This document shows positions 42,048-64,000 of a stretch of DNA of 64,000 nucleotides, one piece after another. The stretch spans positions 2,852,001 through 2,916,000 of the forward strand of contig JAHREC010000011.1 of the NCBI GenBank assembly GCA_020081605.1. The letters run 5' to 3'. The notes under the pieces are model-generated. The model was given only the letters and a program-made list of their open reading frames with translations, did not search any database and had not been told where the DNA came from. Numbering within the stretch: position 1 is the stretch's first letter; the number at the start of each line of letters is the position of its first letter. This DNA comes from Albifimbria verrucaria. Lineage: Eukaryota > Ascomycota > Sordariomycetes > Hypocreales > Stachybotryaceae. The translations under genes and the position numbers were made by a program.

Positions 42048-43483
42048 ATGGCAGAGTTGGCAGAGATTACGGCCCAGGAGGTTGCTGGGCACAAGACGCC
42101 CAATGATGCCTGGATGGTCATCAACGACAAGGGTGAGTTTGTCTAAGTGACGGATTGTGAAAAGAGGTAATACTAACACCATGTTTTTTAGTCTACGATG
42201 TGACCAAGTATCTGGAGGATCACCCTGGTGGCGCTGAGGTCCTGCTCGAGGCCGCTGGTACTGATGCCAGCGAGCCCTTTGACAACGCCGGCCACTCAGA
42301 GGATGCCTTTGAGATTATGGATGAGTTCTGCGTCGGCAAGCTCAAGGGCTCAGGGAAGAAGGCCGCACCCAAGGCTGTGCGCATCATTGGCTCGGCCGTC
42401 GACAAGGCGCCCGTCTCCGTCAAGAAGGGGAGCACTGGAAAGGTCGTCGGCCTAACGCTGCTGTCGCTCAGCACCATTGCCGCCTCGTACGCCGCGCGCG
42501 AGTATCTGCCTAACCTGCCCAAGGCAGCTCTCAAGCTGCCCTGGACCGGCTCTGAGTCTCGTGGCTTCGGCTTCTTCCAGGGCCTGTTCATCGGAGCTGG
42601 CATCCTCACTATCGTGGATACGTTCCTGGCGAACAAGGTCCTGAATATGATCCGCAAGAACGAGTCGTTCCTCAAGTACCCCTCACATCAAGGTCCCCAA
42701 GACCATCCAGTCCGATGTGCTGCTTCGCCGCGGCTGGCTCGACCCCGTCACTTACTACCCCCTTCCTCTCACTAAGAAGACGCTGCTGGCCCCCAACGTC
42801 TACAGACTCACCTTTGCACTCCCCACTGAGCAAACCATCATCGGCTTGCCCATCGGCCAGCACGTCTCCATCAAGGCTGAGATCAACGGCGAGACGGTCA
42901 CTCGCTCATATACCCCCGTGTCTAACAACTCGGACAAGGGCGTTCTGGAGCTTGTCATTAAGGTGTACCCCGATGGCAAGCTGACGAACGGCTACCTGGC
43001 GAACCTCGAGGTCGGTGACGAGGTTATGTTCCGGGGCCCCAAGGGTGCCATGCGCTACTCCTCGGCGTGTGCAGCAAGATTGGCATGCTGGCCGGCGGAA
43101 CCGGCATCACGCCCATGTTCCAGCTGATCCGCGCCATCTGCGAGAACGACCGCGACACAACGGAGATCAGCCTCATCTACGCCAACCGTACGGAGCAGGA
43201 CATCCTGCTGCGGGAGGAGTTGGAGAGCTATGCGCGCCGGTACCCCAAGAACCTCAAGGTGCATTACCTGCTGGACACGCCGCCAGCGGACTGGAAGTAC
43301 GGCTCGGGCTTCGTGACGCAGGAGATGATGGCGGAGCACTTCCCGGCGCCGAGTGACAACACCAAGATCATGCTATGCGGCCCGCCGGGCATGATCAACG
43401 CCGCCAAGAAGTCCCTAGCGAACCTGGGCTACAAGCAGCCCGCGGCCATGTCAAAGATCAGCGACCAGGTCTTCCTCTTCTAG
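42048..43483 (+). CDS. Fused cytochrome b5 / NADH-cytochrome b5 reductase
   Basis: The N-terminal cytochrome b5 domain has WMVINDKVYDVTKYLEDHPG with the HPGG heme loop and a second heme His in DNAGHSEDAF. A linker follows with two hydrophobic stretches (VVGLTLLSLSTIAASYAA and GLFIGAGILTIVDTFL) that may anchor it to a membrane. The reductase domain has the FAD motif RSYTPVS, the VMFRGPKGAMRY block, the NADH motif AGGTGITPMF, and CGPPGMI near the end; it closes with QVFLF. It should pass electrons from NADH through FAD to its own heme and on to an acceptor. Exon 1 is 42048-42132 and exon 2 is 42192-43483; the 59-nt intron has GTGAGT and TTTTAG ends. Frame breaks lie near 42680 (C run probably two short) and near 43062 (G run one short). 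Confidence 0.9.
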
Positions 43484-45371
43484 GTGGATCGGGGGCTGTT
43501 GTAGAGCTACGACATTTGATCTTGGCGGGCTGCCGTTTATCTGTCGACACGTTACGAAGTATAAAAGAGCTATTCTGGGATACCTTCATTTTTTTTTTTT
43601 TTTTTGTGTTTAATTCTCTTTTTCCTTGGGAGTATGTTATAGAAGGGAGAAACTATTAGACAAGATAGACTACTGGTTGTGTATTATTATTACAATCATC
43701 AATAACTGAATACTTTATAGTACACTTATTTGGCCTTTGTAAAGATTGGTGAAATACAGGAGAGGTTGTCGTGCGGTAACAGTGCTGTTAGCAATTGATA
43801 GAGGGTCTAATACGAGGATAATTGGTAAAGCACAAATGAAATGGCACAAAATTAATAGATTGGTATCTGGCATACGAGTATGTCTACAAATGCATTCTGA
43901 TTCTATCTTTATCCAATCCAAATAAGATAGATCCAAACAATCGTTAATTCTTGATGCTTGCAGTCGCATCTTTTCACTGCTCACTTATTTGGGTAACTGA
44001 GCCACCCTTGTCATTCGGACTGACACCGTACCATTCGGACTGGAGATGCCGCATTTTTCTGTCGGGTTGCAAATACGACAATCAGGTGGCTGCCTCGTCG
44101 AGGCGACTTGGCAATAATCACCGAGGCTCGCCACTGAGGCCTGCAGCATGCTACCGCCGAGGCTTGCCACGTTGAAGGCGTCCGAGGTGCCTTCGTTTCC
44201 ACTCGATTATACGCAGTGCCGTGATAATCACAAGCGGTCTGCCTGTTCTACGAAGGGTCCACCGTAGTAGCCTGCGCCAATTAACCGTCTTTGATATCGG
44301 AGTGGCCCTGTTTAGATGGTCGTGCCTCGGACTGAAACCTGGTCTTGGCCACGATTCGGGAGACCCACGTTTTCGAGCACGACGCATCGGAACGCTGATC
44401 CCTGCCATGGCAAGGTCTTCGAGAAGCTGCTCCACTTAATCGAAGAAAGAAAAAGTTTCAGGGACCTTCGTCGACCTCGATTGTGACGAAAGGCTGCATA
44501 TCACGCACGGCATATCGCACGTACCAGGTTCTGGTACCCCGACTGCCTCGGCATGCAAGGGATATGCATAAACTAAGATGATTTGCCGAAGAGTTCAAAT
44601 GACGGACACCCAAGTTTTAGTGGAGACTGATTTAACGTGGTTGATAAGAGGATGCTCAAGCCAAAGATGCCGAGGCTGAAGTTGGGCTCAAAGATTTCTA
44701 GAGTCATTTTCCGTCGCTGGTTGTGTGCTAGACGAGTCAGATGGGCTGCCTCACAACCTTCATTTCGGATTGCATCGTTTGCCGCCGTTTCATTCAATGG
44801 AGAGAAATGGACTGCGAAGAATTGTGGACTCGAAACTCCCCGTCAATCAGTGCCGCCCATGCGTTGCATTCTTCACTCAGTTTCAGGTCTTGCTATCCAC
44901 TCGGATGAAGCACGATTCCTCGCGACCGACCCTTCTTCTAAACCTCCCACACCTGACTGGACCCATCCAGAGGAGAAACAGGCCGTCTACCCGCTGTGGC
45001 GTTCTTTTCCTGTTGCCTCCATCGAACCTTTTTCATGTTTGCGATCGCACTTTGCTGCTTTGGCTTAGGCTAGGCTGAACTATTTGCACTTTAGCTATGC
45101 TGCCTAATCAGGGCTGAGCTGGGCTGAGCTGGGCTGAAACGCTGCACACGTAGTGAACAAAAGGATAGATTCTGGCTGTGGTAATCTTAGAGATTGCATC
45201 ATGGCTTCATTCGTTAATTTCCATGCAGCTTCAATGTCTGGGTAACCTGTCGTCTCCCCGGCAATCGCCAGTTGATGGTGCCATCGCAAACTCACTTAGT
45301 CACAGTACTCGTAAAATCAACACCCTCGTGTGAAGACCAGTTCGTGTTCAGTACGCACTTTCCCTCACAAT
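43484..45371. other. Intergenic region at the border of the accessory block
   Basis: A T17 run (43589-43605) follows the reductase gene, then AT-rich DNA. An open frame at 44637-45068 lacks any motif. Three tandem GGGCTGAGCT units lie at 45111-45137. No gene is recognised. Confidence 0.5.
45111..45137 (+). repeat. GGGCTGAGCT tandem decamer
   Basis: There are two full units and a third of seven bases, flanked by related GGCTTAGGCTAGGCTG sequence. It lies 235 bases upstream of the TPR-HET start. Confidence 0.75.
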
Positions 45372-48300
45372 ATGAGTTCAGATGCTGAAGGCCAGGCCAT
45401 CGGTGAGGACGCTGTTAGGCCGCCGCTCACACGAGAGGAGATACTTGGTCATCTTCTTTCCCAAACCTTTCGTGATGAAAAAGAAAAACTACCTAGTGGC
45501 AGTCTGGAAAGGGCCAGGTATATATTTCAAGCCACCAATCTCTTTATCATGGACTGGGAACAAAATCGGTCGATGGAGTCCCTTGAGTATGCTGCCAAGT
45601 TCGGGCGTGAAGCCTTATTTGAGCTTCCCTGGACATGAAGAAATTCAGCAGTATGTGGATGGGTACATCCTCGTAGCCCAGACAAAAGCCATACTTACAA
45701 AAACCACTGATGCATCCAATGAATACGCCCAAGCTGTTCAAGATGTGATAAGTGTTACAGGTGCTGGGTCGCAAAAGATCGACTTATCCAGCGCTTGGCA
45801 TGGGCGCACTGGGCCACCTTTGAGCACAGCAAAAAGAGTGAGGACCTTGATACTGTCATTGAGAAGATTGAGAAATGTATTCAGACCGTGAGCACGGTTC
45901 TTCCAGAGACAAACCTGGTACTTGGAATGGCTTACAAATTGCGATTCGACTTCACTAACACAATTAGCGACTTGGATCAAGGGATTGATATCATCGAGAA
46001 AGAACTCAAGAACCCTCAATCTGGTGGACCGCAACGGCCTCTGTTTCTCCAAAGGCTCGTGACCTTTTGTTTTATAAAGCTTCAACAATCAGCAAACTTG
46101 GCTGGGTTTGACCGACTTATCGCCAATACCAAGTTTGCCCTTGCGGAGTTGCCTGAATCCAAAGAGAGGGGCTCTCTTGAAGAGAGACTTGTGAAATGGC
46201 AGTTGGCGAGGGATGAGTTAGACCAAGGTCGCACGTGGAAACAGATACTTGACGCTGTTGGTGATCTTGGTATCAGCCCGCCTGGACCAAAGCGGATAGG
46301 AAAGACTCACGTTCCTCAAGAAGTATATGACGCCGTTGCAATCAATCAGCAGCAAATTAGGCTATTAGAGTTACTTCCAGGAAAAGGTGAGGAGGAACTT
46401 GCCTGTAGGCTACATGTTGTAGATTTGAACAAGGAAGCAGGCTATGAGGTAAGTTTTGTTTGAAACGCAACATCGCTCGTTGCTGACATCCCAGGCTCTG
46501 TCTTATACATGGGGAGATCCAGATAAAGTAGCTGAAATTCTTATCGACGGTCACGCCTGCATGGTCACTGTCAACCTTTCCCTGGCATTGAGGAGATTGA
46601 GACTGCCAAGTAAACCACGAATAATGTGGGTGGATGCAGTATGTATCAATCAGAGCAATGTAGATGAGAAAAGTAAGCAAGTGGCTATAATGGGGCAAGT
46701 TTACGAAAACTCCTCACAAGTTGTTGCCTGGCTAGGAGAGCCAAGTGACCCAAAGAGTACAGCGCCCGACACGTCAGCAAGTTCTGTTGTCGATTACAAG
46801 CAAACATCGATCGAGTGGGGCACTGAAGACGACATTCCTCGAATGAAGGCTTTCTTCCTGGATGAAAAGACAGTAGATGACTGGCAGGTTTTTGGGGCCC
46901 TGTCACTTCTCTCGTTGTTCTCGAGAAACTCTCACCTTGACTCACTGCCATTCTTCAAGGACCCTCGTTATCCCGACTTCAATATTGGAATATACCCTTC
47001 AGATTTGTGGCAAGGCTGTTCCAAAGCTCTTTATGAGATTCTTGGTAGCCCTTACTGGAGTCGCGTTTGGATTCTTCAGGAGCTTGTCTTAGGGAAGAAG
47101 ATCCGCATCTATTACGGACGGCATCTTGTCCCCTTTGAAATGTTTTTGGAAGCTGAAAGGCATCTGCACAAGCACTACTACGGATGTTGCTACCAGCATT
47201 GTGCCGCAATATCAAACAACCAGTTGTCTCTTCTTTATGGTCTTGTGCAAGGTTTGCTGCCAATCCGCAGAGTAAAAAATATGAGACAAGCACTTCAAAA
47301 GGGGTTAGGAGCCAAAGTCTCAGAAACCCTGATGTCGGGCATTGACTTCAGAAAGGCAACAGACCCTAGAGATCATATTTACGGTGTTGTAGGTCTCCTC
47401 AAGGAGCAAAAGATGACCCATTGGTGCGCCCCGACTATGAGCTTAAGGTCGAGTCTGTGTTTGCGCGAGCGTGCTTCAAAATCATCCGAGACTCAAACGA
47501 TCTTCAAATCCTCTCATACGCAGATCGCCAAACATTCTTGGATACGCTACCGTCTTGGTGTCATGACTTTGGGGAGAGTGCTATGTTCAACCCGAACCCA
47601 TACGATTGGAGGTCATTCCGTGCTTGTGCCAAAGATGAATTCAACCCAGCCTTGATGAGCGATTCGAAGCTTCTATTAGAGGGCTATCACATTGATACAG
47701 TGGCATACGTCACTGAAGTGAGGCCTTTGAAAGCCTTACTAGGGCATCACTCTCTGCATGGTTCCATCAAGTAGGAGAATTAGGCCGCAAGCATTGTGCA
47801 AACGATGACGGATCATATAAATGGGATAATGAAATGCATTTTGTTGAAGTACTGGGTAGGACAATTCTTGGGGACACCGTACTATGCCAAGACAAATCTT
47901 CGCGCCAGGCAACCTTGGAAGATATTCAGCTGTTGTATAGCTGGTTCCTTTACATCAAGAAAAATATCAATCCGCATACGAAGGACTGGGCTGTAAAAGA
48001 GCTACCGGAGGAACTAACGGGAATTAGAAGCAGTTTCTTGGACCGGACACAGTCAAGGAAACTGTTCATTACACAAGAGGGAAGAATAGGATCAGGAATC
48101 GCATCAGTTTTCGGCCAAGCAAAGGAAGTATTGGTTGGAGACGAAGTCTTTGTATTACCAGGTTCCAACCTGCCCGTCGTCCTCCGTCGATTACAACAAA
48201 GTGAGGCACAAAGTGAAGTTGGCCAAGGAGACGCAAGCACGAGGAATAAGGGTTCCACTCCGACAATTGGATCGAGTGCGAAAGAAGGAGCTCTTTCCTA

Positions 48301-48739
48301 CGCGCTAGTCAGCACAGCGTACGTACATGGACTCATGAATGGCGAAGCGGATGCTTTGGACAATGCGCCGATGAAGATTATTCTGGGCCAATATCCTCTC
48401 CCTACAGGACGTGCTGCTGCTAGAAATGAGGTGACAAAGAACGCTCTGCGAACATCCTTCGCAGTGGGCCACGGAACCACGAAGCACAACACAAAGGAGA
48501 CGCTCTGGATGCAGCCGTATGCACAAGAGCCAGGTCCAGTGTCAGATGGAAATGAACACGCAATCAACGCGGAAGCTTTTCTGTTCCCAGATGGCAGACA
48601 GTGGGACGAATCTTTCAAGCCAATTCCACCACACCGCGTTTGGTTGAGTAAAATGTTTCAGAATATGCCCACCACGGAGGAAGATTGGAGGGAGTATGAA
48701 GATAAGATAGAGGAAAGCGTGCGGAAGAATAGAACATAG
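45372..48739 (+). CDS. HET-domain protein with N-terminal TPR-like region
   Basis: HET domains trigger heterokaryon incompatibility cell death in fungi. The first 340 residues are helical and TPR-like (SMESLEYAAKFGREALFELP; DLDTVIEKIEKCIQTVS; NTISDLDQGIDIIEKELKNP). After a 46-nt intron (46449-46494; GTAAGT, CTGAC, CCCAG) comes the HET core: ALSYTWGD, WVDAVCINQSNVDEKSKQV, then QVVAWLGE and, later, YWSRVWILQELVLGK, all hallmark blocks. The region ATDPRDHIYGVVGLL and the C-terminal GDEVFVLPGSNLPVVLR are also usual for large HET proteins. Frame breaks lie near 45625, 45785, 47412 and 47758; the one near 47412 is one missing A, the one near 45625 perhaps two missing C. The protein is about 1,100 residues. 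A NACHT-ankyrin gene begins 477 bases downstream on the same strand. Confidence 0.87.
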
Positions 48740-49215
48740 CTCGTGATGGAATCGAATGAGCCCTTTTAATAGTCCAATTGTAATAAACTAAAGGTCGTGC
48801 TTTACTTAGATATTTGTTGGCGTAATGTGGTGCTCAAATTAGGCGCGAACAGCCGATGAGATTAACAAGGAACACAAATTGAATAGTCCTCTCGTATCTC
48901 GTAATCTGCGGGGTTATGTAACGCAAGGCTACGAGAAGCAAGATGGGACATGAAAATAACACGTTGGACGTGCCCCTTGTCTTCCTAATAACAGCCAGCA
49001 GGCACTGCATGCCCACGGGCTTGAGTCTATGGTGATTTGAAGAGTTGCGGCCGTTGCAAGCTCATGCTCTTATCAATAATAATGCAGAGCTACTACCTCT
49101 AGGCTTTGCGTTGCCTTTGAATCACCACTGGTACCTGACTCAGAGGCCGGGAGAAAAAGGCTACATCATTTCATGGTTCACCGGGGTCAACATTAGGACA
49201 ATACCGGTTGCTACG
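48740..49215. other. Intergenic region between HET and NLR genes
   Basis: This 476-base spacer contains the end of the TPR-HET gene and the promoter of the NLR gene. A frame open upstream of 49216 continues into the NLR gene but shows no motif, so the ATG at 49216 is preferred. Confidence 0.5.
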
Positions 49216-52200
49216 ATGGATCCCTTGTCTGTTTCGGCCAGTATAGCTGGCTTGGTAACGCTTCGCCGATGGTGTCTTTCGCAAGACCTATCAGTATGCC
49301 AAGGGAGTAAATGATGCCAAGCAGGAGGTGCAGGATCTCTCCAAAAGGTGAGAGATCTGGCGGGCATTCTTCACAATTTATCAATCACTGTTTCCGCATT
49401 GGATGACCACACATTTGATCCAAGCCTTCGCATGCATCATATAAATTCTTGTCGCCAGAGCTTGATGCAATTGGACGCTGCACTATCCAAAGCACAGAAC
49501 GATTTCGATGCCCCTAGTAAGCTAAAGTCTATACAAAGACGACTGAAGTGGCCCCTTTCAACAGCAAAAACGAAGCAAATTATCGAGGATATTGGTCGAC
49601 ATCAGGAAACCATCAGTCTAGCTCTATCAGCAGACTCAATGAGCGCGATTCTGCAGTGCCTAAGCCGACACCATACGCTAGCTCGTAAAGTTGATGGAAT
49701 TGGATTGGATATCAAACGAGCACTAACTATCAACACGCGGATTGAGATGAATAGCAAGCGTCAGGCTGTGCTTGACTTCTTTGCGCCTGTCAATCCTCAA
49801 TACAACTTTGAGATGAGCTTGCGGCTTCGACATCCATTGACTGGGTTGTGGCTTACAGAAGGCTCAATATTCCAGAGCTGGCTCCATTCGAATGACGAAG
49901 GGGACCCCAAGTCGGCAAGGTTATGGTTGAGTGGCATCCCTGGAGCTGGAAAGACTGTCCTAGCCGGCTCTATTATCGAGGAGGCTTTGAGAGAGATGCA
50001 TGAGAATGACGCCACTGCGTTCTTTTTCTGTGACTATAAAAGCGCCCAAAGCCTTGTTCCAACAAACATACTAGGAACAATTGCTGCACAGCTTGCCAAG
50101 CAGGATGATAAGGCATTCGACAATCTGCAAGAATACTACAAGGAGTTGCACCCTGCAAGGCATTTCAGTAAAACGCCAACTACCCACGGGCTAAATCAAG
50201 TTTTGCAATCGATGGTAGAGCATTTCAACCGCGTATTTATCATTGTTGACGGGTTGGACGAATGTCGTGAAGAGATTGATGTTGTGGTGGAGGAACTTCA
50301 CTACTTAGCCATAAGTAATTTGCCGATAAAATTCGCACTGCTGAGCCGCGACGAGCAGATAATCCGCATGAGATTAGAAGATAATTTCTCCCATATCGAA
50401 ATCGCAGCGCATAGGGAGGACTTGCAGCTATATGTTGCTGCGGAAATTGAAGCCCGTGTCCAGGCAAGAAAGCTTCGAATCAAGAGCATGTCCTTCAAAG
50501 ATGAAGTGATTGAGGCAATAGTCAGCAAGTCCGAAGGGATGTAAGTCTTTTTAATGGAAACTCACGTAATCTATATCTCATACCTTGGCAGGTTTCGCTG
50601 GGCTGTTTGTCAGATTGACTATCTTTGCGATTTGCCTAGCGACAAGGCTAGGAAGGAGGCTCTCGCTCATCTTCCTCCAACTCTCAACGCTACCTACGAA
50701 AGGATACTTGAGCGGATCAATGAGGGCACTGAGCAAATTCGACTTTTGGTGCAGAAAGTCTTGCAGCTCATTGCTTGGGAGAAAAAAATATTACATTGAG
50801 CAACCCAGAACTGTGCGAAGCCATTTCAATTTTCGAAGATACCACTTCTATAGAGGCCGATGATATCATCGAGATTGAGGAAGTGACTCTCAGATGTGGA
50901 AGTCTTGTGAGGCAGTCAAATATAGGCGACTACCTTGAATATGCGCATTTCAGTGTCCGAGAATTTCTCGAAGGGGCCGCGGTTGCAACATCACACAAAT
51001 TCTCCGATTATCATATTTCAGGAGACAAAGGATCAGATCTGATAGCGGAAGCTGGCCTTCGTATTCTTACTTTACCTCAATTCTCAAAGTCATTCAGCAA
51101 ATCGAAGGAGCAACTAGAAAGGCTGAAAGAAAGAAACAAGGCACACCTGTTTTATTTCTTTGCTTCCCGATACTTACCAGTCGCTTTGACGTCACGGCAA
51201 TTCGAGAAGCCAAGGACTTGGGAAATGGCCAAATTACTGTTTGATCCAAGCAAGACCTACAACTTCCTAGCATGGTCGGCCAATATTTGCTGCTTTTCAT
51301 TAATGGACGATCCATTTGGACCAATCGATAGGGAGAGGTTCTCGTCCCATCAGTCTTCGCCCTGTCTGTCACCTTCTTCATCTCGTTCATCTGCCAGTTC
51401 GTCTCCCGAGTCTGACGTGGAAGGGTCCGATTCAGAATCCCAACCCAGCAAATCATCTCCGAGAGATACTGAAGTCTTTTTATCCCTATTTCGCATTGAC
51501 TTTACACCACTTCATCTTGCTGCTAGTCTCGGTTTCTCCCCATATGTCGCCACCTAATCGACCTAGGTATGGATGTCAATATCAGAAGCAACTTCGGCAC
51601 ACCGCTCCAAGCCGCACTAGCTGGTCCAACTATCTTCAGTCGGTACGATATCTTTGAGAATGAGCTTCTTACTGATAGAGACGATATCAACTATTACAGA
51701 TACGATTGCCGGATCCCAATTCTAGAAATGTTAATGAAAGCGGGCGCAAGGAACATGGAACAGATTCGTGTCAAGAGCTGGCGACACCACTTCTCCTACG
51801 TGGCTTTCAAAATAGCAGAGAAGCTCGAAAGTTGGGCAATCTTCGGCTACCTGTTAATTGAAGGTATGCCAATAGATGATGAAACATTACAAGAATGCGA
51901 CGTAGCTTCAAGGAAATACTATGGATTCGATATTGAAGGATTTGTCGAAACGGTCCTGCAATCAACAGAGATCTCGAAGTCTATAGATTCTCAGGCAGCT
52001 CGCCTGTATTCTCTGGCTTGGGATTTAGGCGTCAAATTTGGTGTATCGAGCATAATTAACCACAACATCGACAAAACCGGATCCTTTTTAGACATGAATG
52101 ATGAATTATTCTTTGATACGATCACTTTGGCGATAAAAGACGACAATGTGGAATATCTACAGAGAAGTTTCGTCGATACAAGAGTGGAGAGGTATCAGCA

Positions 52201-55200
52201 GGCTCACATGGAGCAATACACACTCCTTCATGTCGCCGCGAGTGAAAACTCGGTTCAGTGTCTGAAAATACTCTTGGAGAGAGGATATGACCCAGGTTTG
52301 AGAAGTAAAGACGGGCAACTCCCTATTCACGCTTGCAGTATTGATGACAACGAAGATGCCCTTCACGTTTTCATTAAGCACCACGTCCAAACAGCCAGCA
52401 AAGACGTTGGACATGGGGCTAGTATATGGCATCATGCCGCATATTTTAACTCTCTTCAGATTTTGCGGGTTCTTCTTAAATCGACCCTGCAAGAGAGACT
52501 CGAGGCACTGAAGGCGACTTCAAAACTGGGACAAACTCCATTGTCCATTGCTCTCCAGGGGGCAATGAACAGGCTGCCCTTCTGCTCTTAGACTACTGCA
52601 CCGAAGAGGCTTGCTTCGGGAGCCAAGTGGACCTATACCGGTTTGCAGCTAGAATTGGCTCTGAAATCCTGGTGAATAGACTATCGGGTGCCGGAGTCAA
52701 ACCCGAACGTGGACCGTCTGGGAATCGCACACCTCTGCATGAAATAAGCCGAAAATGCACTTTGAGCTGTTTGAAGCGGATTTGCGCTCTCTACCCAAAT
52801 GATTCCATGAAGCTAAGCGACGGAAATACTGCTATTGAGGAGTACATGCTTAGAGAAATGATTCACGAAGGTGACCACGCCGATATTATTAGTGAGTTGA
52901 TTGGCAATAACGTCGAATCAACAGATAGAGGGAAACTCGCCAAAATTTGGGAAACCTTCGTCTCAGTCCAGGTATTGGGTCGTAACTTGATTGCGACAAA
53001 CAATACAATTGCAAGGCAAGATGCGTTTGATGTGCTCGAGTTTTTACTGCAGGAGGGCTTTATGCGTGCGTATGAGGAAGAACGGAAAACGTCCGGCCTG
53101 AAACCTTTGTTGATAGCATATCGCAGCTCATTTGGGGTGATACATCTCCATCGTCTCCGCAGTCAATGGTCAAAAAGCCATTGGCATCGTCAAAAGGCCT
53201 GACACCAGTACCATCGCCTCCCTCATCATATTACTCTCCAAGGGTTGTGGACCCAGCACTTTGGAGACCTTCACGAGAACCGCAGCCAGCGCCGACCAAG
53301 AGAATTAAGCGATCGTTCGCCACAACTCCATCTCTACCTCCACTTCAAGACTCCCTGCACCGCGAACAATTCTTGCTTGACCCTGGATCTACGGATGAGG
53401 CGATACTCAGAATAATCAAAGAGGCCCAATACCTCGACACAATCAACAAGGATCCCGCTATCTCTCGCCTGCTGAAACTGAGCATCAGAAAAACTCCAAG
53501 AAACTCTGCAGAGAGCTTTTACGCATTGGGGCCCCGGTTCACAGTGATAAAGAAGAGTCGGCACTGATGCGAGCTTGTAGTATGACCTCGAAATGCGATG
53601 GGGAACTGTTTGAAGAGATTCTTCAATATGCCGACAAGGACAAGCTTGACGACATTCCCTTTGGAAGTACACGAGCTTGTATTCATCTTCTAGGTCAGCC
53701 TGGTGTGACGGACAGCAACAGAAAATTGGAAGCGCTCGTCAAAGCTGGTGCTAATCCAAACCAGACTACTCGAGACAATTTACGTCGTCCTGCTCTTGTG
53801 GATTACCTACTATCGTGGCGAGGCAGTTCGAAAATTAGTGTGACTCTGCTTCATCTTGGAGCGAATCCATTGCTAAAAGCAAAAACAATTATGACGCTTC
53901 GTTGTCAGCCAGTCTAGGAGGACATGAAGAATTCCTTCAAAATCTTTTTGAACATCAGGCCAGTACCGGCGTTAATATCCAGTGGACAGGACGTAGCAGT
54001 GCGTATATTCCTCGTATTAAACAGAGCTTTGTCGATTGTTCAGCGCTACATCTTGCGGCAATATTAAACCGAGTTGGATCTGCACGGTTTTACCTTGACA
54101 AAAATTAATCACCGACGTCGACATCGAAGCAGCGAACGGAGTTACACCGCTGCACATCGCAGCGCATGAAGGACACACCGAGATGGTACAATTCCTTCTG
54201 GACCAAGGTGCCAACATCAACGCGCGGGCTTTGAACAAGCTAAGACCTATTGATTTTGCCATCCGGCAACAAAGGACAATAGTTGTCGAACTTCTGGCCC
54301 AGAAAGGTGAAGGAAATACACCCTCGCAAGACCCACAGAATATGAGATATTCCAACACGGGAGAAAAGCCTCCAGGCTTTTTCAAAGATGCATCATGGTT
54401 GCCAGTCCAAACCAGGAGAGACAAAGCGAGTGCCCTTGAATATTCCATCACGCAAAGCAATCTAAAGATGGGTCTTTACATGATAAAACAAGGCTGCTCT
54501 ACAGAAACCAAGATGCCTAGTTGCCATGCATGCACTCCCTTGCTGCACGCTGTCCGACTCCAGAAAATCGATATAGCCAATATGCTCCTGGACAATGGTG
54601 CCAGTGCCAGGCCAATATATTGTCCGAAGCATGTTATTTTACCATCGCCGGAGTATGATTCAACTGAAGGGGTGTGACAGTCGTTCATGTTGTTTGCCAA
54701 AGAATTATGCTCACTAAACCCCTTCTACAGCGGTTAATGGACAGGTATATTCAAGGCGGTGGCACTTGGCTTTCTTCTCTTCGAACCCCCTGAGCACAGC
54801 AATAGCAGCCCGCAACGACGATGCCTTTCTTGGGTTTTTGATGCACGTGGAAAATAATGCTGTGGCACATACGTAAGACATGGCACCACTCGTTATCCAC
54901 ATGCTTAAATTAAAGCTGACAATATGCTAAACAGTGAAAATGATGGCAAGTCCATTGCGGGCCTTAAGTTGCCTGATGATGTGATACGTATGTATTTGGA
55001 CGAGACGGAGTTTCCAACAAGAGATGCCTGGGTACCACTCTTACATGCAGCCGTCACCTTCTCGAGCCTGGCCATAATTAAAGCTTTCGTCAGCTACAAT
55101 GCTGAAATTGATATCAAAGATCACAATCGGTCCACTCCTCTCCATACTGCGTTAAGATATCAAAGAAAAGATGTGGCAAAGTACCTCATAGACAAAGGGG

Positions 55201-56186
55201 CAAACGTGGCTTCACGTGATAATAATGGCGATACACCACTTTCTATGGCTATTCGGAACTGCAACCTAGAAACTACAAGATATTTAGTCGAACGAGGAGC
55301 CAATTTTAACATAAGAGACACCAAAGGCCGCAATTTGCTATGCATTGCGGCTATCAATGCGTTCGGACTACCACCTAACATGAGGCTTTATGAATACCTC
55401 CTGGACTTGGGTGTTGACCCTTGGGAGTTGGATGAAGGCGGAAATTCGGCTGTGTCTTATGCACTTTCACAGCCAAGTTTATTGACAGTTATTTTGCGAC
55501 GAGATTTATTCAAAGGAGCACCTGTAATGAATTTGGGCCAGTTGGATATTGGAACAGAGACACTGTCGACACTGACGGATTCCTTGCTTCGGCTACGGCG
55601 CTGCTTTCCTGCAGAGGTATTACGAACGGTTGTGCCTATCGAATCGAGCGGAACGAGCCATTTACTTTGTCATGCTGCACGGGCAGACCATCTGTCGCTT
55701 CTTGATTGTTTGTTCTCGCTTGGTATCAATATCGAAGCCGAGGGCTGCGAGCAGGGTACTGCATTAATGGCCGCAGCCGCATTTGGCTGCTTCGATGCCG
55801 TCAGATTGTTCGTCCGACGGGGTGCCAGGATTTCTTACTCGTCAGCAGATGGGACACTACGCAGTGCAGTTCAACTGGCGCTACCCTTCCCAGAAATCGT
55901 TGCCTGGCTTTTATCCAAGCGTTTTACGGCCCAACCTAAGCTCGAGCTATCGCCGCTATCAAGTGAATTTGAACCAGAAGTGAAGCCGTGGAGTGGTATC
56001 ATTCAAGGCGAGTTATCACTAGAAGGGTGGAGCGCACGTTGGTGGGAAGAAACCGATTTAATGTATGCCCAGCGTCTAGTTGAGATTAGAAGAGAGTGGC
56101 TCGGAGATCCCTTACCTGCGAAAGGAGTCAAGCTGCGTACAGACTTGAGGAACAGGGTAACTTCTGAGCAGACGTATCGAGGATAA
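49216..56186 (+). CDS. Giant STAND/NLR protein: Helo-like N-terminus, NACHT, ankyrin repeats
   Basis: It starts MDPLSVSASIAGL, the signature of Helo-like N-terminal domains of fungal STAND proteins, and continues through a helical bundle (to about residue 150). The NACHT domain has Walker A LSGIPGAGKTVLAGSII (about 49925-49975), Walker B VFIIVDGLDECREE (about 50236-50277), and SEGMFRWA over a 51-nt intron (50541-50591). Two ankyrin blocks follow: about 52200-54650, with TPLHIAAHEGHTEMVQFLLD, and 54936-55870, with STPLHTALRYQRKDVAKYLI and DTPLSMAIRNCNLETTRYLV. The C-terminal helix RWWEETDLMYAQRLVEIRRE closes it. A second intron (54869-54935) joins cleanly in phase. At least eleven frame breaks occur (49256, 49343, 50786, 51555, 52573, 53170, 53530, 53905, 54106, 54670, 54793, all approximate). 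Most are fixed by one base in an A, C or G run. About 2,260 residues; an NLR-like sensor is inferred. Confidence 0.82.
50541..50591 (+). other. Intron in the NACHT domain of the NLR gene (51 nt)
   Basis: Donor GTAAGT and acceptor TTGGCAG. Joining restores a Met codon and the typical SEGMFRWAVCQIDYL block of fungal NACHT proteins, so the intron is well supported. Confidence 0.8.
54869..54935 (+). other. Intron between ankyrin blocks of the NLR gene (67 nt)
   Basis: Donor GTAAGA, a GCTGAC branch about 25 nt before the acceptor, and acceptor AAACAG. Joining gives a Thr codon and keeps the frame open to the stop at 56186. An ATG inside the intron (54924) makes the downstream part look like a separate gene, but it is not needed as a start. 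Confidence 0.65.
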
Positions 56187-56360
56187 GAAATTGATTGAGG
56201 ATATTTATTGGCGTTGATATGGCCTACTGCCACTTTATACTTGCCCTGTAGGTTATGTAGAGAGATAGACGTTTATTGTAACCACAGTGCCTTGACTTGT
56301 TCTGGATACAGGTAGACTATGTCTTATCCAGGTAACTTGGAAAAAATTATCACCATGAAA

Positions 56361-56981
56361 TTAACCGTGAGAAGGAGTTCTTCTATCATATTGCCCAGTC
56401 ATCGTGGTACTTTTGGAGTTCATTGATGAAATATTGGTGTGACAATAATAAAGGACCTCGTTGTATTTTGGTCCCCTCCCATCTTCGGTCTTCTCTCCTT
56501 GATTAAAAATCGGAACTATAGTACAACCGATCTTCCCAGCGCACTCAGGGATTTGTTGTCGTATCCATCTGTCCTTCATTTCATAATGTCGTGAATCTAG
56601 AAACAACTATGTTGGTTATCCTGTTGTCAGAGGTATCAGGTGCACGCGCAAGGTACTTACGTTAGGACAATCACTTCTTGCAGTACAGCTGCTTATAGCC
56701 GCCGAATGAACAATACGCTCCATAATCCTGGTAGCAATTCTCAAATTCGGCTCCCAGTCTCTCTCGCTTCTGGTCGATCCCTTCACCATCAGTGCTCAAG
56801 AAACAATCCCACTCATACTCTGGCTCAGGGTAGTCAGTGCAGACGTAGCCGGAACGATCTGTGTGCTCTCCACAAAGGGCGCCGTGCCTGTCCACCGGCA
56901 GACTCGACCCTTATAAGTGCAGTCCGCTAAGGTAGGTTCCAATAGTGACAGAGCGGCAAAAAAATAGATTTGAAGCTGCAT
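56361..56981 (-). CDS. Small cysteine-rich secreted protein
   Basis: A start at 56981 gives MQLQIYFFAALSLLEPTLA, a good signal peptide, followed by a short mature protein rich in Cys, Tyr, Asp and Glu. One frame break near 56862 (TTT should be TTTT) separates the first two Cys from the next six. The frame then reaches a stop at 56671 after a Cys-Lys-Lys end. A minus-strand intron candidate (donor GTAAGT at about 56662, acceptor ACATAG at about 56607) would connect to a further open frame ending at 56361 with three more Cys, but this needs another frame break or a different upstream frame, so the 3' extent is uncertain. The size and Cys content fit a secreted effector or antimicrobial-like protein; that is inference, and I recognise no family. 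It lies tail to tail with the NLR gene. Confidence 0.6.
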
Positions 56982-58343
56982 GGTGTTTTTGGGGAGTTTC
57001 CAGCTGGGGATAGATAATGTGAAAGATTAGTAGCTTGATGAAGATGAGCGTCGAGGATGTGTGTCGAAGAATGAAGGCATTGAGCCGGAGAGGCTACCTG
57101 TTCTGCTCTTATACTTCTCGGATATCGTAGAGTGTTTGCAGTTGAATACTGCGAATTGATGACGAGTAGGATACAATGGGTAGACCTCTTGGCACGAAAT
57201 CATGATTTCATGAGAAGAAAAAAGGGAAAGAGAGGAATGCATGATGCACCCGGTGATCCGTGGCGTTACATCACATCCAACGAAAGCAATGTGTGTTTTA
57301 GTAGCCTTGTCTTGAGACAGCGTCCATGCATGAGGGTTTATTTCTCCACCTCACTCCGATGAAATGGCTTCGGGCTTACGTATATAGCATATTGCGCACC
57401 ACTTGGCTGATACTTCGTCTCACTCAAAGGAATGAGTTCAAGTTGTGCGAATAGTCATGCCTTGATGGGTCCAAAAGGTGGCACAATGTTTCATTACCAG
57501 ACACTCGACATATGTACACAATCACTTTGAAGTCATACGCTCATCATCTTTTTGTACCACAATCCCTAATCCCGTCAACCAGAACTTTATCAAGGGCCTG
57601 CAAGCTTAACTTCATCAGGGCGAAAATACGCTTGGCTATCTCCTCTCCACCAGTCAGTAGTCAGGAAATGACCAATAGCCTCATTTCCCAGAGGGTCGTT
57701 CAAAGCATCTCCTGAATTTGTTCTCTCCAAAATGACAGGTCTTGGTAAACCGGCGGCTACGTGACGTGTCGATTTCCGAGGCCAGCTGTGCAGGCGCCGC
57801 AAATCCGTCGAGTAGAAATGAGAGCGGATAGTTGGCTTTGTGTTCACTTATGGCACCATTGGTTCCCGTATGCTAGTAGTAAAGCAGATGATCGAACAGA
57901 AATTGTTGTGTGAGGGCACCATTGATGATCCAGTCCTGAAATCAACCTTATCGGCATATCACTTCAATGCCCCAAGTCCGTGTCGTATGTATAGCTCAGC
58001 TATATGCTGCGGACTAGTGCTAGGTCGTATGCGACTTTTGGATTGACGTGGTTCCATAGATTTGGAAGAAGGACTAAGCGAGTGCAACCTTGTCACAGCA
58101 GCGATTACTTTGGCAGTATAAGAAGAAGCAATTGCATGCGAGGCGAACCTTTGCCGCAAGCGATATAATTTCGACAGCGTGTTGGCTGATGGATGGCTTT
58201 TGGCGGGTTTGGTTCACATCAGATAAAGCTTGAGATCACGTATCTTCAATCGATCTTCCTTATTTTTAGAATAGCCATAAAGGATATTCAAAATAGCTAG
58301 AATCGTTATTCTTCTTCAATTTATTGATTTCTTAAGTATAATC
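56982..58343. other. Intergenic region
   Basis: No gene is recognised. The frame at 57847-57590 (minus) encodes an 85-residue sequence with WWRGDSQAYFRPDE but has no signal, domain or neighbour to support it. AT-rich sequence at 58250-58345 probably belongs to the 3' end of the hydrolase gene. Confidence 0.45.
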
Positions 58344-59383
58344 TTAAATCAATAGCCAATCTATTAAGGTCTTATGAAATTCTTTAGGATGCGAGATTTG
58401 GGGAGAGTGGCCTAGCCCAGGAAATAGCAGCAGCTTGCTATCAGGGATCTTAGCAGCCACTTCTGGTCCCAACAAGTCATACCTGCCAAGCGCAGCTGCC
58501 ACCTCGGGCGGCGACCAAGCGGCGCCGATAGCCGTCTTGTCTTTGTCGCCGATGATAAGAGCCGTGCGAACTTTGAGGTCTTCGAAGTAAGGTGCTACTG
58601 GCGTGGCGAGGACCATGTCAACGATTTGAGCCTGATTCTTCACAAAATTACCTCGCTGCGATCCGTGGTAGATGTTGACAGACATGTTTACCCAGATGTC
58701 GTACGCAGGCTTCCATTCGCCAACATAGTAGACTCTTTGCTGATAGCTCCGGACAGACTCATAGTTGGTCGCCGCTTCAGTCACGCTGGTTTGGTCGATG
58801 CTGACGTATGGAACGCCTTTCTGGATATAGTCTTCGAGCCCGATTGCATTTACCAGAACAAGGTTGTCAACAGTCTTGGGATATTGTAGACTGAAGCGGG
58901 TGGCGAGCATGCCTCCCATGGAATGACCAATGACAGTGACGTTGCCAATACCCAATGTGTTGAGAAGTTCTCGTGTATTCCACGCAAGTTGGTGCAAGGT
59001 AAACTGATACCTCTCTGGCTTTGAGCTTTTGCAAAAACCAACTTGATCCGGGGCAATGACTCGGTAGCCCTTCTTCGAGAGCACACGGATCGTTCCCTCC
59101 CAAGTCGGCGCGCAGAAGTTCTTGCCGTGGAGCAACACGGCTGTTTTTTGTTGGGTCTTCCTGTCGGCTTGACATCTAGAAAAGCCATATCAAGGTCCTG
59201 AAACTGACTGCGGAATGAGAAGACTTTGACAGGCCATGGGTAAGTGAAGTTGGAACCATTCAAGTCAAGAGGAAACGGGCCATCGTGAATAGACCCATTG
59301 GCTTGGCCAGACACGAGCCTCGAAAATGTTACGGCCGATATAAGACAGGCAAAAATATGCATCCCAGTGCTGCTGAATCTCAT
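58344..59383 (-). CDS. Secreted alpha/beta-hydrolase
   Basis: The start at 59383 gives MRFSSTGMHIFACLISAVTF, a signal peptide; an ATG five codons upstream (59398) is also in frame. After cleavage come an N-x-S/T-rich stretch and the hydrolase fold: LLHGKNFCAPTW (oxyanion region), YRVIAPDQVGFCKSSKP, the nucleophile elbow VTVIGHSMGGMLATRF with the Ser, IIGDKDKT with the likely acid Asp, and FPGLGHSPQISHP with the His. The triad and spacing fit family members of the epoxide-hydrolase/esterase kind. The frame breaks once near 59138 (six As that should be seven). No intron is required. The substrate is unknown; secretion is inferred from the signal peptide. Confidence 0.83.
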
Positions 59384-59398
59384 TATGATGGCCACCAA

Positions 59399-60140
59399 TC
59401 AGAACAAGTAGACAAGAGGGCTCAATGGTTTTATTCGTGGGGTATTTGCAGATGCAGCTGAGATTCCAGAAGCTGGGCGACATCACAACAGACATTGTGA
59501 GCTATTTAAGCTTGAAAGACTGCGCCACTCACCGACGTCAGATAATATGCGAGGGATGCGGAGAATCAGTAATGAAGGTTCGCAATTTAAAGATGTCCAT
59601 GTGATTGGTTCTTGGCTACAGCTTACTGCAACTTTGCGGATCATCAACACCAATCACACCGAAAACCAGAGAGACATCCTGGTGGTGCAATTGACGAAAA
59701 GGCATACCAATGACAGCACGAAGTGTGACTTGAGGAAGACAAATTAAGTAGACGTGCAATATGTCAACAACTGCTTGGGATTGGCTGTCGAGAAGGCCGT
59801 ACTGAGGTGACTAGGTTCTCTTGGAATTAGAAGCTGGCTCCTCCTCTGAATTGGCTCTTCATTTGGCAATTATCTATCGTCCAAGGCAATGTCAGTGGTT
59901 GCATAAAATCATACACGAACCGCGTGGTGTCTGGCAACGTTATGAAGCACCGGTCTTGGGGTTACTAATGCCAAATCTCGTGGGCAACTGAGTCTCTTAA
60001 TGCCCTTATTCAATCTGGAGCAGTCGATCCATTCACTAACGGTATATGCATGTAGACATTTGGTTATCCAAGGTCGTTTGGTAATTATTTGACAGGTGGA
60101 AACCCCAAGGGTTAGCCACACCAAGCGCAGCAGAACCATC
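59399..60140. other. Intergenic region
   Basis: Only short frames without motifs occur. It probably contains the promoter of the hydrolase gene, which reads leftward. Confidence 0.45.
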
Positions 60141-60159
60141 TCGCTACAATCCTAAAAGT

Positions 60160-60610
60160 GAGGAGCGACAAGTCCACGCGGACCCAAAATAAATCGATTT
60201 CGTTGTTACTTGGAGCAGGATCAGACCCTAATGGGATCAGGTCAGCCGAGAAAGAGGGCAAGAACCAGTCGCCCCATGTGCTTATCAACAGGACCGGTCG
60301 AGCCGGCGTCGCCAACCTCCTGATTACCTACAGCGTTAATTCGAATTGGATACCGAGCTTGAAGGCTTGTATTCCTCGCGACGACATGCCGTAGAATCTC
60401 GGCGGCTCGACATGGCGCGCCTGCTTCAAGAACAGGGAGCTGACGCCAACGGCAAGCATCCTATTCGCGGTGGTGGCACTGCGCTACAATTCGCTACCTT
60501 TGTTGAAATTGCCCCTTGCTGTTGAACTGTTGAAACAAGGAGCAGTTCTAAGTGCGTTCTCATCCACCGTAGGCGTCCTTTAGCCGCTCAAAGAGGCAGC
60601 CGAGCATGTG
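60160..60610 (+). pseudogene. Degenerate ankyrin-repeat fragment
   Basis: Three frames carry ankyrin-like pieces in order: SISLLLGAGSDPNGIRS and VLINRTGRAGVANLLIT (60200-60330), LDMARLLQEQGADANGKHP with RGGGTALQFA (60395-60500), and LPLAVELLKQGAVLSA (about 60509-60555). The frame changes and stops between them have no splice sites or homopolymer that would rescue a long protein, and I see no start, NACHT or C-terminal part. It looks like the remnant of an NLR or ankyrin gene, perhaps related to the one at 49-56 kb. Confidence 0.55.
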
Positions 60611-63600
60611 CTTTAGATAAGCTCAGCGTTTAAGCAGTCAGATTTTCGTTGGGCATCTGATACTAGCACACGGAAACATCCTAGCAGCATCGAACGTTAC
60701 GTGCTGCAGAGAAATGATAAGAAACCATGTGCCGGATCTAAGTACAAAGTGGAATTCTTGTCCAAGCCGAGTGTCAAGCGGTGTCATTCCTGGGTGATGT
60801 GAATCATCCTCGGCTAGCCTTCCACCCTGGAGACCGCTTGAGGGCTGTCTTTAGGGTATTTTCTCTCTCTTTTGAGGACCGCCTGGACTAATGACCGATT
60901 CTGCCGTGTACAAGCGCCCGTCCTCGATCCCTCATACGAGGAGCTGATCATTACCTACATTCTTAACCTCGCGCTTGGATCCAACGCCTTGGTCCTCAAC
61001 ATTCGAGACATTAGCAAGCGGTTCGAGCCGAAGTGAGATGCCAATGGCGGGTCTTTATGTATTAATCTTACCCGAGAACGAACAGGCATCAGACTATTGT
61101 CGTCTTGGGCTACCCTTGAGCTCTCTGCGGGACTCAGTCACCTAATTCCACATCCTGCCGCGCCAATCCTAGTAAGCCTAGTACATGTGGAGAATAGCTA
61201 CGCTTCCATAATCTTCAACTTCAGTGGCAGGCTCCGATGTCAGATTTTCCTGATTTGGCTGTTACTGGCAAGGGCTCAGGCGCTACCTATTTCCAAATGA
61301 AGGACTTACGAATCCACCTGAACCAAGTCCAAGGACTCCCATATAACTTATGGAGGTTGAAGTGGGCCGTAATCTAGATAGGTGGCTGTGAGAGAGCTGA
61401 AAATCTGTCGAAGAAAGAAACATAGCATGCCAACATCCATATAGGATTTAAATCTATGGGAATTAGAGTGCTCACGCCGAGAGAGAGTATGCTGGTCTGT
61501 TTCCTGTGTATTAATGCTGTGGGTTTGATCCAAGTACGTAGTCTGTTATATTGCAACACAACCATCTCCTCATATTTGTCACCCATTCATCGTTTGTGGC
61601 TAGAGAAGAAAACCCGACCTTGGGCATAACTTGCATAAAAACAATATGCTTAATCTGTTATGTCGATCATGTATCTCGCTCTTTTTTTCTTTTCTTTTTT
61701 GGTCTCCACAGTTCATTGGTAGCACTTTCACACCTTTTCGTCAACGTTGATGTTGACCATACTTGACTCAGTGCTAACCTGGAGGTTCTTATCGGAGGAT
61801 AATGATCGCTTCTTGTGTACCTGCAGCAAATCCCGGGTTCTATACTGTGTTGAATAACTTGTTGGGATGGATTTAATGAGCATCTGATTGGGTTCACTTC
61901 TTTCGCTCGTTTTGGTTGTTTAATTTCTTCCAAATTTCGTTTATATACGGTGAGATCGTCGACCAAGGCATCCCAGTTCTCACATGAAGCTCTGAGTAAT
62001 AGGATGTAGCTCTAGGATTTTATGGCCAGCCGACGCGTTACCTCTACGTGTCGTGAATTGACATCTATGAGGGTTAGTAGAATACGAATCACAAATTCAA
62101 GAGCATGACACGAGACATTCACGTAACATATGTCATGTTAGCTGCTGTATACGCAACTTTAGACGCTAGAATCGGTACCGTTTCCCATCTGCTATAGAGC
62201 TCTACCCTACATCACGAGTTTAAAACATCGGCCGAAGGGAGTGTCTTGGATTGGTGATGAGAGTCAACCTGCTATGCCCTTTATTCGGAGCAACGTACGG
62301 AATGGGATCTAGGCTGAATCTGTCCCTGGCTCGTTGACCAAAACCTTCAGTGGATTGACTCGTTATTTGTTACTCAGGGATAGCCCGAGTCGAAGACTTC
62401 ACCAATATTCCCATTGTAGGAATTCTAGCTACGTGTGCCGAGGTAGGCGATTCAACAAACCGTTGTTTGCTTCGGCGTTGTTCCTTGAAGGAGTGATAGT
62501 CCCCTGCTAGATGCCCGTGTTGCCTCCAAAAGTCTTATTACATGTGGACCGAAGATGAGGTCAAGTGAGTCTAGCTTTGCCGTTCTACTCGAGAAAAATG
62601 GATGAAAGGAAATGCCCAATCTCCAATTTGCCAGGCCTGGTTTGTTCTGTTTCGCTTTGTCGATGAGTTCCAGTCTTTTATGGGGAGTGACCCACAGCGG
62701 ACCAACGTTGCTAGCCGCTAAGTTGTAAAAATCACCACTGCAAAACAAGGCTAGCAGGGTTTGTTAGTGCCTTGGTGAATTTTTTTTGCTCTATTTTTTC
62801 CTTTTTCTGCCATTGCGGCAAGAAATTCTGCCGGCTGGGCGGTGAGAGCTGCCTTGCAGCTGCTATAAGTAGCCGCCTTACTCTCGTCCTTTCGATTTCT
62901 TTTTCTTTTCTTCTTCACGTCGACAATACTTCAGTATGTCCCCCTACCTTTTCCATCATCACCATCGTCCAAGCGCCTTGCTAACAATCTTGCAGGAGAA
63001 TCATTTCTATAGTATTCGACCTTCTCTTGGTTCCCTAAAAGAGCCACAGATCCCACCCTGGTTGATGAGTGCATATCCTCGACACCCTAGAGTGAATACC
63101 TTGGTCCTCTCGCACTATCCGCAAGGATGGCGGTGACTTGCTCGTCAAGCCACTGTATAGAGAGTCGTTTCCCTCTTGATGATCTCGACCCTGTCCGCGG
63201 TCTGCCTTCGGGCGCGAGGATAGGGTGGGTGTTGATGGACGTCTGACAGGCATTTTTTTCATTGTGGTTCGAGGCTTGTCTCGGTCATGAAGAAGAATCC
63301 ATGTGCGATCAAAACTTCCAAGAAGGGGAAAAAGTTCCTATACACTTGTCCACCCATGTCATGCCGTCAACCTCTTGCGACTTACTCTCTTGGGCTGATG
63401 ATTACCGATGAGACCGTCGTGTTGAGTGCTTGAGACCGTTGAGGCAGGCCTTGGTCTTCAACTCGACCAGCTGTGCGTGGTGGACAGAGCCAAAGAGCAT
63501 AGTTGTGTCTATCCACGCACACCAATTCCTTCGGCGCACCAACATGGCCGATAGAGTCAGTCTTATCTTCAAATGCTGGTGTCGCAAACTGAATTGCTTG

Positions 63601-64000
63601 CTGTTTCTTCTCCCTCTCTTTTTGTTCATGAATCAGCTTGGTTAACATGAATCGCGGAGACTGACTGGCGCATCTCCGTCATGTAAGGCTGCAGTCATGG
63701 CCACGGAAGCCGACCCTTTTGCTCCCAATATCGAACCGGTAGTAATGGAGGAGTGACAGTGACATGGAGAAAGCTGGCCGCCACTTGCTCACATCACCAT
63801 ACATCCACGTCTTCAATGAAACATATTTGAGGAAAGTTAATTTACTTGGAGCATACGCTAGTTGGCAGATATAGACTCCTGATATTCTAATGATACACCC
63901 AATCAGAGGGCAATTGGTCTGTTTTTGCAAAGAGTGCTTACTGTAGAAATTACAGGGATATACTTAGTATATGGGGCTCAAGAACTTTTCAGGCAAACGT
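60611..64000. other. Region without recognisable genes
   Basis: Short frames occur on both strands and none has a convincing motif. The stretch about 60900-61060 (plus) contains small protein-like pieces next to the ankyrin remnant and may be part of the same decayed gene. A poly-T/pyrimidine stretch lies near 61680-61700, and CTTTT/TTTTC runs near 62778-62800. The window ends inside DNA that I cannot assign. Confidence 0.45.

What the first reader, a model, noticed from the sequence alone, without database searches (positions are those of the whole stretch)
45372..56186. TPR-HET gene directly upstream of a giant Helo-like/NACHT/ankyrin NLR gene: candidate allorecognition module
Two same-strand genes, 477 bases apart, encode the two main protein types of fungal incompatibility: a HET protein, here with a TPR-like N-terminus in place of a standard sensor, and an NLR with a Helo-like death-fold N-terminus and long ankyrin sensing region. 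Both parts of the pair have repeat-type interaction regions. A TPR-HET executor next to an NLR sensor could work as a sensor and effector pair. Linkage is seen; functional coupling is inference.
Basis: partly seen in the sequence, partly recalled or inferred. Interest (0 to 1): 0.75.

Follow-up and report, generated by a model that had tools for sequence, protein, structure and literature searches.

The report
Neighbouring fungal cell-death and NLR genes
Two large fungal immunity-type genes, a cell-death (HET) gene and a receptor (NLR) gene, do sit side by side as described, but close neighbours of these kinds are about as common as chance in a genome full of both, so the proposed self/non-self recognition module is not shown.

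Summary
The anatomy is right. A HET-domain gene (45372-48739) and a PF17111-like/NACHT/ankyrin NLR gene (49216-56186) lie on one strand, 476 bases apart. The HET protein's N-terminal ~300 residues are a TPR-type helical solenoid by AlphaFold and fold matches; Pfam TPR models do not see it in the window. The module claim is weak. Of 150 HET and 153 NLR places listed in the genome, 6 pairs lie within 4 kb, against 3.8-5.0 expected. The NLR has its own effector-type N-terminus and no matching motif was found, unlike published NLR/effector pairs. One result goes the other way: two of seven contigs with full-length TPR-HET relatives (Hypoxylon argillaceum, Nemania sp. FL0031) seem also to carry a large NLR, of another subclade and at unknown distance. 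A review states that the vast majority of fungal HET and NLR genes are not allorecognition genes. Both genes are cut by frame changes, in the NLR nearly all at single-base runs; 91-95% identical unbroken copies exist and a housekeeping neighbour is broken too, so assembly errors are likely. Most likely: two ordinary members of expanded immunity families in a HET-rich, lower-GC stretch.

The parts
45372..48739 (+). TPR-HET gene; read in six segments with one predicted intron and four frame changes
45372..46448 (+). N-terminal region: TPR-type helical solenoid (hairpins about every 41-47 residues)
   Evidence: AlphaFold of relative P0002 residues 22-297 and of the window piece 45795-46448; fold matches
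46449..46494 (+). predicted intron (GT...AG, 46 bases) just before the HET core
   Evidence: read from the sequence
46495..47082 (+). HET domain (PF06985)
47083..48736 (+). [quoted passage not shown]
   Evidence: P0001 covers it, 95% identical over HET domain plus C-terminus; P715, S716 nearly invariant and W717 invariant in alignment A2; passage
48740..49215 (.). 476 bases between the two genes
49216..56186 (+). NLR gene, about 2300 residues; two predicted introns and 11 frame changes, 10 at runs of four or more identical bases
49216..49680 (+). N-terminal Helo-like (PF17111) domain, below the Pfam cut-off
   Evidence: 22.4 bits; relative P0122 35.7 bits
49840..50349 (+). NACHT-type NTPase (PF24883 / PF05729)
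50541..50591 (+). predicted intron
   Evidence: read from the sequence
51490..56183 (+). ankyrin-repeat region
   Evidence: Ank_2 matches in pieces 51527-52591, 54099-54677 and 54909-56186
54873..54934 (+). predicted intron within the ankyrin region
   Evidence: read from the sequence

Best explanation
These are two separate members of the two big expanded families of fungal immunity-type genes, neighbours because both kinds are numerous and lie here in a HET-rich, lower-GC stretch that starts at about 44 kb. The first encodes a TPR solenoid fused ahead of a TIR-like HET domain: the solenoid probably binds a partner or ligand and holds back or releases the HET domain, which triggers cell death. 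The second is an all-in-one NLR: ankyrin repeats sense, the NACHT domain assembles, and the N-terminal Helo-like helical domain acts at membranes. Each has both a sensing and an acting part, so neither needs the other. Shown here: domains, the fold of the TPR part, chance-level closeness. Inferred from the families: every step of mechanism.
For: Domains. TPR fold. Family sizes: at least 150 HET places (150 of 297 candidates scored) and 151 PF24883 places (150 of 287 scored). Pairs of HET and NLR places: within 4 kb 6, against 3.8 for random placement (95% range 0-8) and 5.0 for rotation (1-10); within 6 kb 10, against 5.7 (1-11) and 7.5 (3-14); within 10 kb 16, against 9.5 (4-17) and 12.6 (6-20) (the NLR list holds all 80 PF05729 places, checked). 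Two more HET genes follow at 64130-66244 and about 66.9-68.8 kb in window numbering, just past the window end. 21 of 131 HET-HET gaps are within 22 kb, against about 7% by chance. GC 0.47 over 44-64 kb against 0.55 over 30-44 kb. Close metagenome copies are unbroken (P0001 95%, P0121 91%). [quoted passage not shown]
Against: Within 20 kb there are 31 pairs, above the random-placement range (19.0, 11-28) though inside the rotation range (25.0, 16-38): HET and NLR genes do share neighbourhoods loosely. A TPR-HET relative and a large NLR of the same superfamily seem to share a contig in Hypoxylon argillaceum and Nemania sp. FL0031. In this genome two NLRs stand out as close to that superfamily, and one of them is the window's. 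The place lists are lower bounds.
Confidence: 0.72

Rival explanations
1. Sensor-effector pair: the NLR senses through its ankyrin repeats and activates the TPR-HET protein in trans, with the TPR part as the docking site.
For: Same strand, 476 bases apart. A TPR-HET relative and a large NLR share a contig length on 2 of the 7 contigs with full-length TPR-HET relatives: 128437 (H. argillaceum, P0005 and P0199) and 538957 (Nemania sp. FL0031, P0003 and P0242).
Against: Chance-level closeness in this genome. The NLR has its own effector-type N-terminus from residue 1. No shared motif: HET C-end against NLR N-end scores 20 with shuffles averaging 24; HET 1-340 against NLR 1-200 scores 41, reached by 5.6% of shuffles. 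The NLRs on those contigs are in another subclade. A 2012 study that looked for HET/STAND pairs reports none meeting its criteria (PMC3321046, passage).
Confidence: 0.12
2. Allorecognition (het/vic) locus: the two genes form a haplotype whose non-allelic interaction kills mixed cells.
For: Linked non-allelic pairs are a common form of het locus (PMC12881547, passage). A NACHT-ankyrin gene is the likely hetE gene of Aspergillus fumigatus, and Botrytis Bcvic1 is a NACHT-ankyrin gene paired with a SNARE gene (PMC11138114, passages).
Against: Only a small part of HET genes act so (5 of 125 in P. anserina, PMC10197012, passage). No tandem array was found in the NLR region, where near-identical repeats mark the fast-changing NLR sensors of Podospora. 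The described partners of NACHT-ankyrin het genes are membrane-traffic proteins, not HET proteins.
Confidence: 0.06
3. Both genes are dead: the frame changes are real mutations and the pair is a relic.
For: 15 frame changes in the two genes. In the HET gene only 1 of 4 lies at a run of four or more identical bases, so run-length error does not explain those so well. The intact copies are from other, unnamed sources and could differ in this.
Against: 10 of 11 NLR changes sit at runs of four or more identical bases, which with flanks make up 6.3% of the gene. The open segments join with gaps or overlaps of at most 8 bases outside the introns. P0121 (91% identical) crosses nine of the NLR changes and P0001 (95%) two of the HET changes without a break. 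The housekeeping cytochrome b5 reductase next door changes frame between about 43053 and 43073 with no room for an intron.
Confidence: 0.07

Closest known systems
het-B (Bh/Bp) of Podospora anserina (PMC10890737: abstract, outline and passages seen)
   Same: A HET protein with an added recognition domain (there a C-terminal lectin fold) beside a linked partner gene.
   Different: The partner is a PII-like protein, not an NLR; gene order there is conserved in 28 of 31 taxa; here conservation is not shown. The added domain here is N-terminal and TPR-type.
nwd2/het-S and other STAND/effector gene clusters (PMC3321046: passages seen)
   Same: A cell-death effector gene next to an NLR gene.
   Different: There the NLR lacks an effector domain and carries a motif matching the effector's end; here the NLR has its own Helo-like N-terminus and no shared motif was found. 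That study looked for HET/STAND pairs and reports none meeting its criteria.
Botrytis Bcvic1/Bcvic2 and Aspergillus fumigatus hetE (as described in PMC11138114: passages seen)
   Same: NACHT-ankyrin NLR gene with a neighbour or partner gene, tied to incompatibility.
   Different: The neighbours are a SNARE syntaxin gene or a boi1 orthologue, not a HET gene; function there is tested, here not.
TPR-HET relatives P0002-P0008 (Nemania, Hypoxylon, 'Lasiodiplodia mahajangana', Elaphomyces, two unnamed)
   Same: Same layout over 91-99% of the length, 39-46% identity.
   Different: P0006 carries a second N-terminal copy. Seven such relatives stand out among the 120 of 245 matches listed.

Membership tests
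HET-domain protein (PF06985) | HET domain above Pfam cut-off | tested here: met
   102.4 bits against 22.5
HET-domain protein (PF06985) | Domain triggers cell death | not testable with these tools
   needs expression in a fungus
TPR protein | Solenoid of helical hairpins of the TPR kind | tested here: met
TPR protein | Pfam TPR sequence model | tested here: inconclusive
   none listed for the window protein at E <= 1; TPR_10 in 2 of 8 aligned relatives, best 3e-4
Fungal NLR | NACHT or NB-ARC domain | tested here: met
   PF24883 1.2e-33; NACHT 34 bits against 26.7
Fungal NLR | Superstructure-forming repeats at the C-terminus | tested here: met
   ankyrin matches over the second half
Fungal NLR with Helo-like effector | PF17111 at the N-terminus | tested here: inconclusive
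   22.4 bits, cut-off 27.2; relative P0122 35.7 bits
NLR/effector gene pair (nwd2/het-S kind) | Effector gene immediately beside the NLR gene | tested here: met
   476 bases
NLR/effector gene pair (nwd2/het-S kind) | NLR lacks its own effector domain | tested here: not met
   Helo-like N-terminus from residue 1, sub-threshold in the window, above threshold in P0122
NLR/effector gene pair (nwd2/het-S kind) | Matching motif in NLR N-terminus and effector end | tested here: not met
   no sigma or PUASM pattern in either protein (a relaxed G.G.Q occurs once, in the HET protein only), no end-to-end similarity; HRAM and PP motifs were not scanned by pattern
NLR/effector gene pair (nwd2/het-S kind) | Linkage conserved between species | tested here: inconclusive
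   contig lengths agree on 2 of 7 contigs with full-length TPR-HET relatives, with an NLR of another subclade
Allorecognition (het/vic) locus | Balanced polymorphism between strains | not testable with these tools
   one genome held; two metagenome proteins 95% and 91% identical
Allorecognition (het/vic) locus | Incompatibility phenotype | not testable with these tools
   needs strains
Fast-changing allorecognition NLR (HNWD kind) | Near-identical repeats in the sensor | tested here: not met
   no tandem array over the NLR, no direct repeat of 30 bases or more

The most novel reading that the evidence does not exclude
TPR-HET proteins work in trans with large Helo-like/NACHT/ankyrin NLRs, and the NLR beside them has been swapped for a relative of another subclade in different lineages (window: Arachnomyces-type; Hypoxylon/Nemania: P0199-type). 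That would be a HET/STAND gene pair, a kind that a 2012 study looked for and did not find (PMC3321046, passage).
Probability: 0.1. Interest if true: 0.65.

Novelty: new member of a known kind. Interest (0 to 1): 0.27.

Why it matters
[quoted passage not shown] A HET protein with a structured TPR part, in a small family with full-length relatives listed from few genomes, is a tractable case for asking what switches a HET domain on. If the NLR link proved real it would give an NLR that signals to a HET protein in trans, of which I saw no case in the passages read.

Tried and rejected
Closeness as evidence of a pair: rejected as chance level at 4-10 kb; at 20 kb the count exceeds random placement but not rotation. 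Shared amyloid or other motif: none found. P0199-type NLR as orthologue of the window NLR: rejected, the tree joins the window NLR with Arachnomyces P0122 (100/98) and keeps P0199 in another well supported group (window plus 44 rows that I chose from 185 listed relatives). A second TPR-HET in this genome: the N-terminal piece matches only itself. Repeat expansion in the ankyrin region: none seen. RIP decay of the stretch: indices do not point to it (TpA/ApT 0.60-0.78, second index 1.22-1.49 over 42001-64000; thresholds recalled). Papers that name a TPR-HET layout: 'HET-TPR', 'TPR-HET' and 'HET domain', two of three asked for, gave 0 papers; some searches were the other searches for HET/NLR pairs or linked loci. 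That Arachnomyces and Elaphomyces are Eurotiomycetes and Nemania and Hypoxylon Xylariales is recalled. Genome sizes of about 45 Mb used to weigh contig lengths are assumed.

Papers: PMC9815663, PMC12881547, PMC10197012, PMC3321046, PMC4986451, PMC10684091, PMC11138114 passages only; PMC10890737 abstract, outline and passages; others in listings only.
Full report
What is there. The window lies at C8:2852001-2916000 of an unnamed 48.4 Mb, 41-contig genome. [quoted passage not shown] 476 bases separate them.

Frame changes. Neither gene is open throughout. The NLR has two predicted introns and 11 further frame changes; the HET gene has one predicted intron and four further frame changes (introns read). 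Of the 11 in the NLR, 10 fall at runs of four or more identical bases, which with one flanking base cover 6.3% of the gene; of the four in the HET gene only one does. Close copies are unbroken: the metagenome protein P0121 is 91% identical and crosses nine of the NLR changes, P0001 is 95% identical and crosses two of the HET changes. The cytochrome b5 reductase gene nearby is also broken: two frames match residues 17-127 and 109-261 of the same solved chain, 7rom, and the switch lies between about 43053 and 43073, too short a stretch for an intron. The simplest reading is indel error in the assembly rather than gene death. How the genome was sequenced is not known to me.

Relatives. Of 245 HET matches 120 are listed; seven full-length relatives (P0002-P0008) cover 91-99% at 39-46% identity, and P0001 is a near-identical fragment. 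Of 412 NLR matches 120 are listed: P0121 is a near-identical fragment; Arachnomyces P0122 is 41% identical over 99%, while the other listed matches with 97% cover or more are 27-30% identical. Both searches scored only the roughly 8000 candidates sharing most words.

Is the pair conserved? No DNA of other fungi could be fetched, so I used contig lengths as a stand-in. Seven contigs carry the full-length TPR-HET relatives. Two have the same length as a contig with a large NLR in the two lists of 120: H. argillaceum (P0005 and P0199, 128437) and Nemania sp. FL0031 (P0003 and P0242, 538957). The other five do not: N. abortiva (131425; its listed NLRs on 62942 and 133960), L. mahajangana (25384; NLR on 13725), Elaphomyces granulatus and two unnamed. 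FL0031 also has a listed NLR on another contig (P0185, 528999). P0199 was used as a query because of the first coincidence, so H. argillaceum is not an independent test. If genomes are about 45 Mb, which I assume, a given gene falls on such a contig by chance in about 0.3% and 1.2% of cases; with a few such NLRs per genome this is suggestive, no more. Against it, P0199 and P0242 are not orthologues of the window NLR: the tree joins the window NLR with P0122 (100/98) and places the P0199 group apart. Against the N-terminal and NACHT part of the window NLR they rank 81st and 35th, against its ankyrin part 137th and 135th, among 183 proteins compared. Arachnomyces has the orthologue-like NLR but no listed TPR-HET. 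In this genome P0199 finds the window NLR (41% over residues 1-499) and one at C4:1113-1119 kb (51% in the NACHT part) well ahead of the rest; the nearest listed HET place to the latter is about 56 kb away.

Is the closeness unusual? With 150 HET places and 153 merged NLR places, 6 pairs lie within 4 kb; random placement gives 3.8 (95% range 0-8), rotation of one set along the contigs 5.0 (1-10). Two of the six have the HET gene upstream on the same strand. Within 6 kb there are 10 (5.7 and 7.5 expected), within 10 kb 16 (9.5 and 12.6). Within 20 kb there are 31, above the random range (19.0, 11-28) but inside the rotation range (25.0, 16-38). So the two kinds share neighbourhoods loosely, and close pairs are not in excess. 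The place lists are lower bounds (150 of 297 HET and 150 of 287 PF24883 candidates scored); the 80 PF05729 places are all represented. A few pairs are copies on small contigs with near-equal scores.

Setting. GC falls from 0.55 (30-44 kb) to 0.47 (44-64 kb). Beyond the window end come two more HET genes on the same strand, then a dual-specificity phosphatase and an alpha/beta hydrolase. In the genome 21 of 131 HET-HET gaps are within 22 kb, where about 7% would be expected. HET genes of Neurospora are likewise clustered with lineage-specific genes (PMC10684091, passages).

How it most likely works. The HET protein couples a TPR solenoid, a binding surface, to a TIR-like cell-death domain. The NLR couples ankyrin sensing, NACHT assembly and a Helo-like membrane-acting end. 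Each is complete. In the known NLR/effector pairs the NLR lacks an effector and shares a motif with its partner; here the first is not met and no such motif was found. A 2012 study searched for HET/STAND pairs of that kind and reports none (PMC3321046, passage). All mechanism is inference from the families.

Verdict. Observation confirmed; interpretation partly supported: the parts are right, the module is not shown. Interest is modest, mainly for the TPR-HET family, with a small chance that its link with large NLRs is real.

Noticed in passing
window 42161-43483: NADH-cytochrome b5 reductase gene changes frame at about 43053-43073 without room for an intron; sign of assembly indels in this contig.
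   Followed up: yes
window 44000-64000: GC drops from about 0.55 to 0.47 at about 44 kb and stays low past the window end (0.46 in L022); start of a HET-rich stretch.
   Followed up: partly
L022 130-2244 and 2931-4776 (window numbering 64130-66244 and 66931-68776): Two more HET genes on the same strand within about 13 kb after the NLR, the second one also broken in frame; then a dual-specificity phosphatase at L022 7771-8385.
   Followed up: partly
window 58344-59398, - strand: Alpha/beta hydrolase gene (Abhydrolase_1 3e-26 on 58344-59189) with a signal-peptide-like start by eye, between the NLR and the next HET gene.
   Followed up: partly
L023 (C4:1112001-1121000): The other NLR of this genome close to the P0199 type, on another contig and without a listed HET place within about 56 kb.
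   Followed up: partly
G000 C20, C21, C23, C24; C12, C17-C19; C11 and C30: Several PF24883 and HET places have equal or nearly equal scores on different small contigs, as if copies of one stretch were repeated or assembled more than once.
   Followed up: no
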